From assembly GCA_902728285.1 (NCBI GenBank), contig CACVBU010000532.1, positions 584,059 to 648,058 of the forward strand: a stretch of DNA of 64,000 bases. The letters run 5' to 3'. The stretch's first letter is position 1, and every line of letters begins with the position of its first letter. Source of the stretch: Clytia hemisphaerica. Lineage: Eukaryota > Cnidaria > Hydrozoa > Leptothecata > Clytiidae. Of this stretch, positions 180-28,883 are shown piece by piece. Under the pieces are notes generated by a model, which was not told where the DNA came from, ran no database searches, and saw nothing but the letters and a program-made list of their open reading frames with translations. Both the position numbers and the translations under genes were made by a program.

Positions 180-7851
<7,672 letters not shown>

Positions 7852-23219: not shown

Positions 23220-23614
23220 AAATGGAAGGTTGACGGTTGACGGTTTTCAAGATGGCGGCAAATTTTTAGTTTTTCATTTTAAATTTTAAATTGTTGGTCA
23301 TAAGAAGATCATAAGAAGATTTCGGTGGAGGATTTTCACCAGAGAGGAGAATACGGTGGAGGATTTTCACCAGAGAGGAGAATACGGTGGAGGATTTTGA
23401 CAAGAGGGGAGATTTCGGTGGAGGATTTTCTACAAAGTAAAGAACCATCAAACCCATCCTTGAACCAACAACACTCAGCAAACAAATCCTGTTTTTCTTG
23501 TTTCAAAAATTTTAATAGGGTCAAGAGTGCGTGACCTACAAATTACGTAGTTTTTTAGAACCTATGAAATTTACTGAACAGACAAAAGAAAAGGCAAGAA
23601 TATATAGATAAAAA
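23220..23614 (+). promoter_or_regulatory. LINE 5' UTR with a YY1-like site and 31-bp tandem repeats
   Basis: CAAGATGGCGGC at 23248-23259 is a YY1-type core, the kind of site that sets transcription starts in mammalian L1. Four 31-bp units (GGTGGAGGATTTTCACCAGA...) start at 23324, 23355, 23386 and 23417. Tandem units upstream of ORF1 recall promoter monomers of some L1 families. The 5' end of the element is not fixed; near 23220 is a guess. Confidence 0.55.
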
Positions 23615-25426
23615 ATGGGGGAGAGATCAACAACAAAAGCAACAAAAGTCTATGCGGTTAAAACAGGCAGAAAGAAAGGACTGTTCGAGACATGGGAAGA
23701 GTGCTCAGAACAAGTAAATGGATATAAAGGGGCAGAATATAAAGGTTTTAAGACTAAAGAAGAGGCAGAAAAATATTTTCAAGGGATAACCGCTTTCGAG
23801 AAAGAAAACAGAGATACACCGAAAGGAGAGGAAGTAAAACATAGTGCTTTAATAAATCCTGAACTGGAAGAAAAAAGTACTCAGGGAGAAGAAGATGATC
23901 TGGAAGAGGAAGAATTTTATGATATCCCAGTAGGAGAGAGTGAGGAAGATGATTTAAGCCAACCTGTGGTGACTCTAAATAAAGAGTCACACTCGAAACC
24001 AAACAGCAACGAGATGGAAGAAAAAGACAAGGATGAGGCAGGACTAGGAGAGTTTGAGAAAGGCAGAGATGAAAACAACAGATGCGGATATTGTAAAAAA
24101 ATGATATCCAAATCAACCATCAAAGCAATAGAGTGTGACCTATGCTCTAAATGGTTCCACAGCAACAAACAGTGTGGAAGTGAGTTAGTGCAGGTGTACA
24201 ACCAAATTATATTACTAGGTGACAGCCCTCTTCTAAAGTGGTACTGTAAGACGTGTGAAAGTGAAATAGAGAACCATCAACAGAAAATAGCAGTCAATGT
24301 AATGGCCCTAAAAGCGGCAGAAGAAAAAGTAGAAGAAAAGAGTGACACCATAGCAAAACTTAAGGCAGAGGCAAAGCTGATGAAAGATAATCTAAAGATT
24401 GAGGAAGAAAAACACCAGATGGCATTAGTACAGATAAATGGAAAAGAAAGATGGATATCAGAAGTCGCAAGAGCAATAGGCATACACCCAAAGCAGAATG
24501 AAGAAGGACAAGAAACAAATGGAAAGGAAGTGCTCCAGTGCTTAAAAAGAAAATGGGATGAAAGCAAAAAACGGGAAAAAGGACTTAGAGACGAGATAAA
24601 ACAATACAAGAAAAACATAGAGGAGACTATAGTGGAGAAAAGAGAAATAGAAAAAATGCTACAAGAAATGATAGAGAACGCTGAACAAGAGAAGGAAAGT
24701 AGGCAGGAGAAAGAAATTACGATTCCAGACAGAAGAGCAGAAGCTGAGGAAACAGAAATCACCAGGAAAGAGAAGAAGATAGAGGAAAAAGTCCAGGGAG
24801 AAGCAGAACCAGCAGTGACAAAGAATAAACAGCAGAACCACAAAGGAAAATGGGAAGAAAGGCAGAGAGTAAGACCAGGAAAGCCAACCCAATGGGAAAA
24901 CCAGGTGGAAAAAGACCAAGAAACCAGAAGGCAAAATAATGAAGCGGGAAAGAAACTTTGTATATGGCATAATAAAAAAGGATGTAGATTTCAGAACCAC
25001 TGCAAGTTTGAACACAAGAAACTATGTCAAAACATCAGAGAGGAAAAGGAATGTAAGAAAGCCAACTGTACACAAAGCCATGATACATCAATTGTATGTA
25101 GATATAACAAAGATTGCAATAAACCAAACTGCAAATTTATCCATACACAAGACAGAGAGCAGGGAAAAGAAGAGAACCAGAGAGAGAGGAATCAGTTAAC
25201 AGACGAAGGAAGGGGACAAAAAAGAAGGCAACATGAACAGATCAGCAGAATCAAGCAATTTGAAAATGAAAGTGAAACTGATACAAGAGAACAACAACTG
25301 TTGGAGAGACTGACTCAAATGATGGGGAAAATGATAAAGGAAAGCGTAAAGCAGACCCTACAACAAATAGGAGAAGAAAATGGAAACTCGCCTTTTTTAG
25401 GAGAGAGAGGGACTCCCCCTCAATAA
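23615..25426 (+). CDS. LINE ORF1: hybrid-binding domain, PHD-like finger, coiled coil, three CCCH fingers
   Basis: The ORF encodes 603 aa. Residues 11-57 (VYAVKTGRKKGLFETWEEC, then QVNGYKGAEYKGF) are a clear RNase H1 N-terminal/viroplasmin-type fold that binds RNA-DNA hybrids. An acidic linker follows. A PHD-like finger spans about 157-218 (CGYC, CDLCSKWFH, WYCKTC). A long Lys/Glu coiled coil covers about 220-375. Three CCCH fingers lie at 449-510 with spacings C-x7-C-x5-C-x3-H, C-x8-C-x4-C-x3-H and C-x6-C-x4-C-x3-H. A short Gln-rich helix ends the protein. The likely role is to bind element RNA, and perhaps the hybrid made during target-primed reverse transcription. The last codons carry the T-TTT-TTA heptamer. 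Intact frames suggest a young copy. Confidence 0.85.
   Translation: MGERSTTKATKVYAVKTGRKKGLFETWEECSEQVNGYKGAEYKGFKTKEEAEKYFQGITAFEKENRDTPKGEEVKHSALINPELEEKSTQGEEDDLEEEEFYDIPVGESEEDDLSQPVVTLNKESHSKPNSNEMEEKDKDEAGLGEFEKGRDENNRCGYCKKMISKSTIKAIECDLCSKWFHSNKQCGSELVQVYNQIILLGDSPLLKWYCKTCESEIENHQQKIAVNVMALKAAEEKVEEKSDTIAKLKAEAKLMKDNLKIEEEKHQMALVQINGKERWISEVARAIGIHPKQNEEGQETNGKEVLQCLKRKWDESKKREKGLRDEIKQYKKNIEETIVEKREIEKMLQEMIENAEQEKESRQEKEITIPDRRAEAEETEITRKEKKIEEKVQGEAEPAVTKNKQQNHKGKWEERQRVRPGKPTQWENQVEKDQETRRQNNEAGKKLCIWHNKKGCRFQNHCKFEHKKLCQNIREEKECKKANCTQSHDTSIVCRYNKDCNKPNCKFIHTQDREQGKEENQRERNQLTDEGRGQKRRQHEQISRIKQFENESETDTREQQLLERLTQMMGKMIKESVKQTLQQIGEENGNSPFLGERGTPPQ
25393..25421 (+). promoter_or_regulatory. 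Predicted -1 ribosomal frameshift site
   Basis: In the ORF1 frame the codons CCT-TTT-TTA contain T-TTT-TTA (25393-25399), the X-XXY-YYZ pattern for -1 slippage. After a 7-nt spacer, GAGGG (25407-25411) can pair with CCCTC (25417-25421) to form a short GC-rich stem. ORF2 lies exactly in the -1 frame, open from 25282 on, and ORF1 stops at 25424. The hairpin is small; a pseudoknot was not found by eye. Confidence 0.6.
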
Positions 25427-28400
25427 ATAAAGGAATAACAATAACAGAACAGGACAAGGAGAAAGACAAACTAGGAAATTTTTCGAGGCAACCAAAAAAT
25501 GAAAGGAAAAAGACTAGAAGAGGAGGAAAGAAGGTCAAGAACACTTTGAAGAATTTCGAAATTTATTACAACAACATCAGAGGGATCAAATCAAAGATGT
25601 CGAGCGTGTTGAGCATTGTAGATGAAAGGAGGCCAGATATGATCATCCTTATTGAAACATGGCTAGATGAGAGTGAAAAATTTGAAATCAAGGGGTACAA
25701 GCCTTATCGAAACGATAGAACATCAAATGGAGGTGGGGTCCTGATAGCAGTAAAGGAGCATTTAGAGCCAATCACAAAGAAGGTTTCAATGACAAAAGGG
25801 AACCTCGAAAGCCTATGGATTACTTTAAATAACAAAAGACACAAAATCAAGATTGGAGCAGTCTACATCCCAAAAGAAAACATAGGAAGAAACAAACTAC
25901 AAGAGGCCTTCAAGGAAATAGAGAAAGAAGTAGAACTTGGGATCATAGGAGACTTCCAAACCATGGTAGTAGGAGATACAAACTCGAAAATCGAAAGCGA
26001 GGGTGAAAGTGTAGGAGGAAAGATACAAAAAGAGATGGTTGAGAGACTAAATTTCACAATAACCAACGAAACAGACAAATGCCAGGGCAAGTGGACAAGG
26101 ATTGAAGGAGAATGTAAATCAAGACTTGACTATGTTATGACATGCGAAAGAGCAGAAAACAGCATAATATCAATGCAAATAGACGAAGCTAAGATATGGA
26201 CACCCTGCAGACTGAAGAAACAAAACGGAGAAATAAGACAGATATATAGCGACCATACTGCCATTATGGTGGAATGCAATTGGACCATTGGCGAATGTGG
26301 CAAAAAGAAACAGCAATACACACGTCATGGGCCAGCAGAAATGAAGAGATTTGAAGAAATGCTGAAAGACAAAAAATTCAAAGAGGTACTCAATAACGCT
26401 AAGGAAGGAATGAGTAGGCGATATGAGCAATGGTCAGAAATGGTTGCGCAGGCATATGAAAATGCAGGAAAAAAAGTATCACCTCGGAATGGCCAGTCAA
26501 AGGAGGAGCGGCTGCTAAACCAAAAATACAAAAATCTGAGAAAGATACAACAGGGAGAAGATAAAAACCTAACAGAAGAAATACAGAAAGTTAAGGAGGA
26601 GATTCTAGAAGCGGAAGGAAGAAGGATCAACAACACAGTAGTAAGAGCTGTGCAAGAAATGAAAAAGAAGAATGGCGGTATTGACCAAGCAAAATTTTGG
26701 GAGATACATAAAAAGATCACCCAAAGAAGGAGAGAACCACAAACAACATCAATCAAAGACAAAGAGGGAAACCGTAAAGACGATAAGCAAGAAGTTTTGA
26801 AAGTGTACAAAGAGTTTTATGAGGAACTGCTAACACCAAAGGAATACACCACAGAGAGGGGAAAACAGCAGGAAAGGTTAATTGCAGAAGATTTTGAGGA
26901 AATCATAAAAACGGCAACAAAGCAGAAACCAATGGAAATCACCACAATGACCATAAATAGAATAATCGAAAAGCTGAAAAAAAGAAAAGCACCAGATAGA
27001 GAACAGTGGAGAAACGAAATGCTCATAGGAGGGGGAACTGAAATCGAAGAGCACCTCAGGATCATTTTTAACCAAATATCAAATGGAGAGGAGATACCCC
27101 AAGCGTGGCAACGAGTCAAAATAAAGAGCATCCACAAGAAAGGATCCACACTGGAAATGAACAATAGGAGAGGAATCTTCATTACAAACGTGGTCAGTAA
27201 AGTATGGGAAAAAGTGCTCCTAGAAAGAATGAACCAAACAATGAAAATTGACATAAACCAGAACGGTGGGCAGAAGGGAAGAGGAACCTTGGACAACTTG
27301 ATGGCCATACTGAGCATACAGCAGATGGCAAAGCATAGAGAAACGTACATTGTCTTTGCAGACGCAAAGAAGTGTTTCGACCGACTTTGGCTCAAAGACT
27401 GCATCAAGGACTTGAAAGATGCAGGAGTGAGAGAAGCTGAAGCCAGACAAGTGTTCAAACTTAACAAGAAATGCCAAATCATCATTGACACCCCAGTGGG
27501 TTCCACTCAGGAGATAGAGATAGGGGAGATCGTGAAGCAAGGAACAGTTTTGGGGCCACAACTGTGCTGTGCATCAACAATGATGGTGAACAAAGTTGGT
27601 CCCGGTATAGTAACATCAATGGCACCAGGTCTACAAGTAAATGCGCTAGCTTATGTAGATGACATTGCTGGGGCAGGCTCAAAACTGGCAGCAGAGAACA
27701 CTTTAAAAGCACTCAAGGAGATGGAGGAGACAAAAAAATTCACCTTCTCAACCTCAAAGACGAAAATACTCCACATAGGGAAGAAAAAGAATGAAGAAGA
27801 GCTGTCTTTTGAACTGAGAGAAGGGATGGTGAGGGAATGTCAAGAATACAAATATCTGGGAACCTGGCTGAATCAAAGAGGCAACTTCTCGAGACAACTC
27901 CAGGAAATAGAACAGAGAGCAGGAAAGATAGCAGGAGTCATAAACTGCCACGGCCAAAAAGCAATCTCAATGGAATTGGCAACAAAGTTGTTCCTGTATA
28001 CGGAAACAGGAACAAACTCAATCTTCGGAGACGTAGAGCTATGGCCAGCACTCACAAAGACAGACTGGGAGAGTCTTGAGTCCATACACACCTCCAACAT
28101 CAAAAAGTTTCTTGGACTCCCAGTTACAACACCCAGCTGGGGAGTTCTAGCAGAGACAGGTATCTGGCCAATAAAGGCCACGATAAATTACAAGAGGCTA
28201 ATGGTTCTTCACAACATAGTGAACGGCAAAGAACGCTTGGCAAAGACTATTGTTGAAAGCCAAATGACAAGAAAGTATGATGATGAAAGCTGGTACAGTG
28301 CAACATGGAGGATAGCTGAGAAACTAAAGATACCAGGGGAGCTGAGAGGATTGCCCAAATCAAATTGGAAAAGACAAGTAAAGGAGGCAACAAGAAAGGA

Positions 28401-28779
28401 GATTCAAGAAGAAGTGAGAAGAGAAATAAAGACGAAAAAGAAATTGAGATTCCTGACAAACTTTGAGGAGAAGACCTATCTCAACGTCAACACTCAAGCA
28501 GATGCCAATCTACTCCTGAGAGTACGCTTGAATATGATCAAGGCAAAAGCAAATTATGGAGACAAAGGGACTTGTAGATTTTGCAGTAAGAAGGAAGAAA
28601 GTACAGAGCATCTAGGAGAGTGTGAGGAGATTGATGCTGGAAAAGTAACAGTGGATGAAATCAAATCAGGCAACCAAGAAAGCTTAAAGAAAGTTGTCAG
28701 GAGATACAGAATGGTTGAAAAGATGCTCCAGGTAGAGGAAAAAGGTGGCGATGCCATCTACGGAAAATCACGGAACTAA
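25399..28779 (+). CDS. LINE ORF2: AP endonuclease and reverse transcriptase
   Basis: The frame is open from 25282 to 28779 with no ATG until 25597, which lies after the first endonuclease strand (YYNNIRGIKSK). Start by -1 frameshift from ORF1 is therefore favoured. The N-terminal 245 aa from 25546 carry ETWLDE, GDTNSK, SRLDYVM and SDHTAI, an APE-type nickase. The reverse transcriptase has FADAKKCFD (motif A), KQGTVLGPQL (motif B) and YVDD (motif C, about residue 703 counted from 25546). Near the end a CRFC-x7-H-x3-C knuckle follows. No RNase H domain is seen. It would nick target DNA and copy its RNA there. The endonuclease looks CR1/Jockey-like (YNNIRG); the clade is not settled. Confidence 0.9.
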   Translation, partial: RRERDSPSINKGITITEQDKEKDKLGNFSRQPKNERKKTRRGGKKVKNTLKNFEIYYNNIRGIKSKMSSVLSIVDERRPDMIILIETWLDESEKFEIKGYKPYRNDRTSNGGGVLIAVKEHLEPITKKVSMTKGNLESLWITLNNKRHKIKIGAVYIPKENIGRNKLQEAFKEIEKEVELGIIGDFQTMVVGDTNSKIESEGESVGGKIQKEMVERLNFTITNETDKCQGKWTRIEGECKSRLDYVMTCERAENSIISMQIDEAKIWTPCRLKKQNGEIRQIYSDHTAIMVECNWTIGECGKKKQQYTRHGPAEMKRFEEMLKDKKFKEVLNNAKEGMSRRYEQWSEMVAQAYENAGKKVSPRNGQSKEERLLNQKYKNLRKIQQGEDKNLTEEIQKVKEEILEAEGRRINNTVVRAVQEMKKKNGGIDQAKFWEIHKKITQRRREPQTTSIKDKEGNRKDDKQEVLKVYKEFYEELLTPKEYTTERGKQQERLIAEDFEEIIKTATKQKPMEITTMTINRIIEKLKKRKAPDREQWRNEMLIGGGTEIEEHLRIIFNQISNGEEIPQAWQRVKIKSIHKKGSTLEMNNRRGIFITNVVSKVWEKVLLERMNQTMKIDINQNGGQKGRGTLDNLMAILSIQQMAKHRETYIVFADAKKCFDRLWLKDCIKDLKDAGVREAEARQVFKLNKKCQIIIDTPVGSTQEIEIGEIVKQGTVLGPQLCCASTMMVNKVGPGIVTSMAPGLQVNALAYVDDIAGAGSKLAAENTLKALKEMEETKKFTFSTSKTKILHIGKKKNEEELSFELREGMVRECQEYKYLGTWLNQRGNFSRQLQEIEQRAGKIAGVINCHGQKAISMELATKLFLYTETGTNSIFGDVELWPALTKTDWESLESIHTSNIKKFLGLPVTTPSWGVLAETGIWPIKATINYKRLMVLHNIVNGKERLAKTIVESQMTRKYDDESWYSATWRIAEKLKIPGELRGLPKSNWKRQVKEATRKEIQEEVRREIKTKKKLRFLTNFEEKTYLNVNTQADANLLLRVRLNMIKAKANYGDKGTCRFCSKKEESTEHLGECEEIDAGKVTVDEIKSGNQESLKKVVRRYRMVEKMLQVEEKGGDAIYGKSRN

Positions 28780-28883
28780 AATACGACGTATTTATAGGTC
28801 TCGCACTCTTTTATTAACAATATAGAAGTGCCTATCAAAACAAAAGATAGAGAGGACCACGCAGAATCGCAGAATCGCAGATG
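28780..28883 (+). other. LINE 3' UTR with short terminal repeat
   Basis: The stop is followed by about 80 bp and then GCAGAATCGCAGAATCGCAG (about 28862-28881), two and a half copies of an 8-bp unit. Such short repeats in place of poly(A) end CR1/L2-type LINEs. The true 3' end is inferred. Confidence 0.45.

What the first reader, a model, noticed from the sequence alone, without database searches (positions are those of the whole stretch)
25282..25597. LINE ORF2 is probably made by -1 ribosomal frameshifting at T-TTT-TTA
The heptamer at 25393-25399 is in the correct phase in ORF1, 25 nt before its stop. ORF2 is in the -1 frame, open from 25282, and has no ATG until 25597, beyond the first endonuclease strand. 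A 5-bp GC stem begins 7 nt after the heptamer. This would yield an ORF1-ORF2 fusion. Most LINEs described use stop-reinitiation or internal entry for ORF2; no TAATG-type stop-start overlap is present here.
Basis: partly seen in the sequence, partly recalled or inferred. Interest (0 to 1): 0.85.

Follow-up and report, generated by a model that had tools for sequence, protein, structure and literature searches.

The report
Jumping gene using HIV-style frameshift
A young LINE-type jumping gene in an animal-like genome appears to make its copying enzyme by letting ribosomes slip back one base at the same seven-letter sequence that HIV uses, and distant relatives in the same genome carry that sequence too.

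Summary
T-TTT-TTA lies at 25393-25399 in ORF1 phase, ORF2 is in the -1 frame with no ATG before 25597, and there is no stop-start overlap. Comparison supports the -1 frameshift reading. Four deep lineages of this LINE clade in the same 417-Mb genome (ORF2 about a third identical) carry T-TTT-TTA in ORF1 phase at the junction. In each of five elements tested, TTTTTT occurs once in the sense stretch held; expectation for TTTTTTA is 0.03-0.10. In two lineages the -1 frame stays open for 52 and 113 codons from slip site to ORF1 stop, which synonymous shuffling rarely gives. A fifth lineage lacks the site and has an ATGA stop-start overlap. The 5-bp stem exists but is neither significant nor shared. 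One of 8 copies found spanning the site has five T; it is broken elsewhere too. Precedent: a review says Dictyostelium TRE5-A and TRE3-A need a -1 frameshift for ORF2, so the principle is not new. An animal LINE with this conserved heptamer did not turn up in our searches. No expression data were available.

The parts
23615..25426 (+). ORF1, 603 aa: RNase H1 N-terminal (Cauli_VI) domain, weak PHD-finger match, coiled coil by eye, C-terminal C/H-rich fingers by eye
   Evidence: Pfam Cauli_VI E 2.8e-18, PHD E 0.01 below cut-off
25282..28779 (+). ORF2 open frame (-1 relative to ORF1), 1165 codons: AP-type endonuclease and reverse transcriptase
   Evidence: Pfam RVT_1 E 3.3e-20, Exo_endo_phos E 2.9e-6
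25393..25399 (+). slip site T-TTT-TTA in ORF1 phase; the only TTTTTT in the coding sense strand
25282..25423 (+). ORF1/ORF2 overlap, 142 nt, open in both frames
25407..25421 (+). 5-bp hairpin GAGGG/CCCTC, 7 nt after the slip site; not significant, not shared by other lineages
25424..25426 (+). ORF1 stop TAA; no overlapping start codon
25564..25584 (+). YYNNIRG, start of the conserved endonuclease core, upstream of the first ORF2 ATG
25597..25599 (+). first ATG in the ORF2 frame, inside the endonuclease domain
28780..28881 (+). short 3' region after the ORF2 stop, ending in tandem CAGAATCG-type units that vary in number between copies (3' end shared by copies)

Best explanation
This is a young, two-ORF, endonuclease-bearing LINE whose ORF2 is made by programmed -1 ribosomal frameshifting. 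Most ribosomes read ORF1 to its stop and make ORF1p. A minority slip back one base on U-UUU-UUA at 25393-25399 and continue at AGG (25399) into ORF2. The product would be a fusion of 595 ORF1 codons and 1,126 ORF2 codons (counted from the coordinates), a Gag-Pol-like logic. Shown here: the sequence arrangement, its recurrence in four deep lineages, and the openness of the -1 frame. Inferred: that slippage happens, its efficiency, and that the fusion is the active enzyme.
For: (1) Four deep lineages (window family; C34; C680/C775/C261; C128:230 kb) have T-TTT-TTA in ORF1 phase where the -1 frame is open. The endonuclease tree shows long branches between them (C261 not in the tree). (2) TTTTTT occurs exactly once in the sense stretch held of each of five T6A elements examined, at the junction; first-order Markov expectation of TTTTTTA is 0.027-0.096 per stretch. 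(3) From slip site to ORF1 stop the -1 frame is open for 113 codons in C34 (17 of 5,000 synonymous shuffles) and 52 codons in C680 and C775 (154 and 180 of 5,000), while the +1 frame is closed. (4) In the window, C133 and C34 copies the first ORF2-frame ATG lies inside the endonuclease. (5) The lineage without the slip site (C417, C355, C366) has an ATGA stop-start overlap instead. (6) Of 8 copies found that span the site in T6A lineages, 7 keep T6A: window, C133, C680, C775, C261, C34, C128. (7) Weak control: in 0 of 15 loci of other LINE clades did the script list T-TTT-TTA in phase in an overlap (L062-L076). (8) U_UUU_UUA is the HIV shift site (PMC5009743, passage read).
Against: No expression data. 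No significant or conserved downstream structure: z between -0.94 and +1.25 over six sites, two lengths each. The C49 copy has five T, although it is broken elsewhere. The C128 copy is degenerate: a stop in the -1 frame after the slip site and a frame change before the endonuclease, so one search lists its endonuclease frame as +1 of ORF1. The C680 family has an ORF2-frame ATG inside the overlap, 73 nt before the ORF1 stop, so a start codon cannot be excluded there. C34 and the C680 family hold a second in-phase heptamer nearer the stop (CCCAAAC, AAACCCA). In the window itself the openness test has no power: 8 codons, 4,717 of 5,000 shuffles open. In three of four lineages the site sits in a shared Pro-Phe-Leu peptide, so part of the recurrence could reflect protein homology. 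All lineages come from one genome.
Confidence: 0.85

Rival explanations
1. ORF2 is translated by termination-reinitiation or internal entry, with a non-AUG or downstream start, as proposed for other LINEs; T6A is incidental.
For: A sister lineage (C417, C355, C366) has an ATGA overlap. Near-cognate codons exist in the ORF2 frame after the ORF1 stop, e.g. TTG 25546 and ATT 25561. A review states that SART1 and L1 ORF2 translation depends on ORF1 translation and may involve reinitiation (PMC2881922, passages).
Against: Window, C133 and C34 have no ATG before the endonuclease core and no stop-start overlap. It does not explain a unique in-phase T6A in four lineages or the 52- and 113-codon open -1 stretches inside ORF1.
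Confidence: 0.1
2. Polymerase slippage on the T6 run makes a fraction of mRNAs with an extra U, fusing the frames.
For: T6 is a homopolymer. One copy (C49) shows a length change there.
Against: In the 7 T6A copies the run is exactly six T followed by A and in the phase of a tandem-slip heptamer; polymerase slippage needs no phase and would favour longer runs (general knowledge).
Confidence: 0.03
3. The T6A is a by-product of a conserved Pro-Phe-Leu peptide at the ORF1 C terminus.
For: Window, C680 family and C128 share PFL at the site.
Against: C34 has SFL, aligned at a different point of ORF1 (an uncertain alignment). Synonymous shuffles keeping the protein reach TTTTTTA in the overlap in only 1355, 383, 871 and 401 of 20,000 for window, C34, C680 and C775.
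Confidence: 0.02

Closest known systems
HIV-1 gag-pol -1 frameshift (U UUU UUA)
   Same: Identical heptamer (PMC5009743 passage) in the 0-frame phase; would yield an upstream-downstream fusion in the -1 frame.
   Different: Here a LINE with an AP-type endonuclease, no Pfam protease match, and no significant downstream stem.
Dictyostelium TRE5-A (DRE) and TRE3-A
   Same: LINEs described in a review as requiring a -1 frameshift for ORF2 (PMC5911963, figure-legend passage; the primary papers were not read).
   Different: Dictyostelium host and tRNA-gene targeting. Their slip site and its conservation were not seen by us. Homology to this element was not tested.
SART1 and L1 (reinitiation-type LINEs)
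   Same: Bicistronic LINE RNA with ORF2 output dependent on ORF1 translation (PMC2881922 passages); the C417 lineage ATGA overlap resembles this type.
   Different: The window element has no stop-start overlap and no ATG ahead of the endonuclease.
Paramecium LINE groups 1-3
   Same: LINEs whose ORF2 was inferred to need recoding or reinitiation (PMC5405496, passages).
   Different: There +1 frameshift or reinitiation, or stop readthrough, not a -1 tandem slip.

Membership tests
Non-LTR (LINE) retrotransposon, AP-endonuclease type | reverse transcriptase plus AP-type endonuclease in ORF2 | tested here: met
   RVT_1 E 3.3e-20 and Exo_endo_phos E 2.9e-6; R2 retrotransposon chains match the RT by sequence
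Non-LTR (LINE) retrotransposon, AP-endonuclease type | 5'-truncated copies sharing one 3' end | tested here: met
   Copies start at different points and reach the same 3' tail
Named LINE clade (CR1, L2, RTE and others) | placement in a reference RT phylogeny | not tested
   No reference set of eukaryotic LINEs was at hand
Canonical -1 programmed ribosomal frameshift site | X-XXY-YYZ heptamer in 0-frame phase within an overlap with a -1 ORF | tested here: met
Canonical -1 programmed ribosomal frameshift site | stimulatory stem or pseudoknot 5-9 nt downstream | tested here: inconclusive
   Weak 5-bp hairpin at 7 nt, z -0.43; not shared by other lineages; pseudoknots not modelled
Canonical -1 programmed ribosomal frameshift site | measured frameshift product | not testable with these tools
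   no expression data
Stop-start (UAAUG/AUGA) reinitiation LINE | start codon overlapping the ORF1 stop | tested here: not met
   absent in the window element; present in the C417, C355 and C366 copies

The most novel reading that the evidence does not exclude
An old animal LINE clade uses a retrovirus-like -1 frameshift at U-UUU-UUA to make a Gag-Pol-style ORF1-ORF2 fusion, kept across lineages whose ORF2 proteins share only about a third of residues. One lineage carries AUGA stop-start coupling in its place, with ORF2 in the same relative frame, so two decoding devices have interconverted within one clade; which came first is unresolved.
Probability: 0.65. Interest if true: 0.75.

Novelty: new variant of a known kind. 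Interest (0 to 1): 0.66.

Why it matters
How LINEs translate ORF2 is known for only a few elements. A compact, conserved slip site would make ORF1:ORF2 stoichiometry in an animal LINE directly testable with an about 100-nt reporter. It would imply an ORF1-ORF2 fusion enzyme without the protease that retroviruses use, and the sister lineage with ATGA offers a natural comparison of frameshifting with reinitiation at a homologous junction.

Tried and rejected
Relatives outside the genome: viral contigs with the ORF2 protein and with a 3-row ORF2 alignment, and genome contigs with the alignment, gave no relative; genome contigs holds prokaryotes. A conserved stem: rejected. Rfam in 25200-25700: one sub-threshold plastid match, E 0.036, taken as chance. 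A generic heptamer as evidence: rejected, since 50-81% of synonymous shuffles have one in the four elements tested. A-AAT-TTT in the C417 lineage as a slip site: doubtful, because the C366 copy reads GAAAAATTTCG while keeping ATGA; C366 is itself a broken copy with two stops.

Rows dropped: L038 (C128:1.07 Mb) was shown as a junction, but its tblastn hits place that frame change between endonuclease and RT, so it is not an ORF1/ORF2 junction and is not counted. L055 (C366) was listed with its endonuclease frame +1 of the upstream frame; I count it as ATGA. L058, L059 and L060 show no junction that I could read (L060), and L061 aligns to C34 only from downstream of the slip site. No DNA search for further copies of the C128:230 kb or C417 families was made, and the tool says its repeat counts are lower bounds.

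Literature: 10 searches used. On -1 or translational frameshifting in LINEs; on LINE ORF1 domains; on sponge LINEs. The library holds open-licence papers only; Kojima 2005 was not held. Ten papers were seen as find-passages only, none whole: PMC5009743 (12 of 16 places shown; first 300,000 of 475,107 characters held), PMC4120745, PMC5405496, PMC7175516, PMC5911963, PMC2881922, PMC1965478, PMC5006619, PMC4700185, PMC1925062.

Full report
What is there. The window lies in contig C373 of a 417-Mb assembly; neighbouring ORFs match SH3, SH2 and tyrosine-kinase domains, a Ras-family GTPase and dystroglycan, so the host looks like an animal. The element has ORF1 at 23615-25426, with an RNase H1 N-terminal domain (E 2.8e-18) and a sub-threshold PHD match, and ORF2 open 25282-28779, with an AP-type endonuclease and reverse transcriptase. 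Other copies start at different points and share a 3' end of CAGAATCG-type tandem units. For the 901-nt junction query three other places match: C133 and C49 at full length, and C338 from query position 555 on, downstream of the slip site (4 of 4 candidates scored, counts are lower bounds). Of the three copies that span the site, the window copy is the only one with both ORFs open: C133 has ORF1 split in coordinates by about 1.15 kb, and C49 has several frame breaks and stops.

The junction. T-TTT-TTA at 25393-25399 is in ORF1 phase (CCT TTT TTA), 24 nt before the ORF1 stop; ORF2 is in the -1 frame. The first ATG in the ORF2 frame, 25597, lies behind YYNNIRG, the conserved start of the endonuclease. 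So a plain ATG start would remove the start of the endonuclease core. No stop-start overlap exists.

Comparison. An endonuclease search of the genome returned 150 matches (434 candidates, 150 scored) and 30 loci, all examined. I take the first fifteen (L047-L061, E 2.4e-16 or better) as the window's clade by score; eight clade members were placed in a tree. Of these 15, six have T-TTT-TTA in ORF1 phase at the junction: window, C133, C34, C775, C680 and C128:230 kb. Three (C417, C355, C366) have an ATGA stop-start overlap instead; C355 has only a short open ORF1 remnant, and C366 is broken. One (C49) has five T. The other five (L050, L058, L059, L060, L061) are truncated or have no junction that I could read. 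A third copy of the C680 family, C261, also keeps T6A. Thus 7 of 8 copies found that span the site in the T6A lineages keep it. The lineages are deep: ORF2 identity to the window is 35% for C417 and C34, and the endonuclease tree puts window, C34, C128, C775/C680 and the ATGA group on separate branches whose order is unresolved. It therefore does not say which device came first.

Is it more than chance? Generic X-XXY-YYZ heptamers are common in such overlaps by chance, so only the specific facts count. TTTTTT is present once in each of five T6A elements on the sense strand (5,165, 3,857, 1,331, 1,709 and 1,033 nt held), in each at the junction and in phase, with first-order Markov expectations for TTTTTTA of 0.095, 0.096, 0.075, 0.027 and 0.056 for the whole stretches; C417 has none. 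With the protein held fixed, shuffles give TTTTTTA in the overlap in 1355, 383, 871 and 401 of 20,000 for window, C34, C680 and C775. From slip site to ORF1 stop the -1 frame is open over 113 codons in C34 (17 of 5,000 shuffles) and 52 codons in C680 (154 of 5,000) and C775 (180 of 5,000), the +1 frame being closed. In the window (8 codons, 4,717 of 5,000) and C417 (11 codons, 1,529 of 5,000) this test has little power. C680 and C775 are near-copies and not independent. The slip site lies 111, 21, 12 and 30 nt after the opening of the -1 frame in window, C34, C680 and C128 (read), while its distance to the ORF1 stop varies (24, 339, 156 and 114 nt).

Against. Pseudoknots were not modelled. The C680 family has an ORF2-frame ATG within the overlap, and C34 and C680 hold a second in-phase heptamer nearer the ORF1 stop. 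The C128 copy is decayed. All evidence is from one genome: no relatives were found in two viral scans and one prokaryote-genome scan.

Mechanism. Most likely -1 programmed frameshifting giving a fusion of 595 ORF1 codons and 1,126 ORF2 codons; the slip itself and its rate are inferred. The ATGA group suggests that the clade keeps ORF2 in the -1 frame while the decoding device changes; A-AAT-TTT upstream in C417 and C355 is not kept in C366, so stop-start coupling is the likelier device there.

Prior art. A 2016 frameshifting review (PMC5009743; passages only) mentions no LINE ORF2 made by -1 frameshifting in the passages seen; it does say that the gag gene of the Drosophila telomeric element HeT-A needs a frameshift. 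A 2018 review states that TRE5-A and TRE3-A of Dictyostelium require a -1 frameshift for ORF2 (PMC5911963), and Paramecium LINEs were inferred to use +1 frameshift or reinitiation, or readthrough (PMC5405496). In searches (listings, with passages from ten papers) I found no animal LINE with a conserved U-UUU-UUA site. Hence new variant of a known kind.

Control in other clades. In one search none of the 15 loci L062-L076 is listed with T-TTT-TTA in phase in an overlap. The control is weak, because many have no clear ORF1. TTTTTTC or TTTTTTT is listed in short upstream frames of 69-127 aa in L062, L063 and L068. Three related loci (L073, L075, L076) have ORF2 in the -1 frame with GGGAAAC and AAAAAAC in phase, but their ORF2 frame opens with its own ATG.

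Noticed in passing
L073, L075, L076 (rc coordinates 1174-1249): Another LINE clade in the same genome also has ORF2 in the -1 frame, with GGGAAAC and AAAAAAC nine nt apart in ORF1 phase in a 76-nt overlap, but ORF2 opens with its own ATG.
   Followed up: partly
23523-23558 and 28776-28810: A 36-bp, 86% inverted repeat links the 5' region and the 3' region of the element (E 7e-5 in self-comparison); the 5' arm is also found in C133.
   Followed up: partly
23615-25426: ORF1 begins with an RNase H1 N-terminal (Cauli_VI) domain, which I do not recall as typical of LINE ORF1s; one literature search gave no LINE example in its five listed papers.
   Followed up: partly
4337-4511: Perfect 86-nt inverted repeat with a 3-nt spacer.
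   Followed up: no
C133:421618-422769 of the own genome: ORF1 of the C133 copy is split by about 1.15 kb, probably a nested insertion (coordinates).
   Followed up: no
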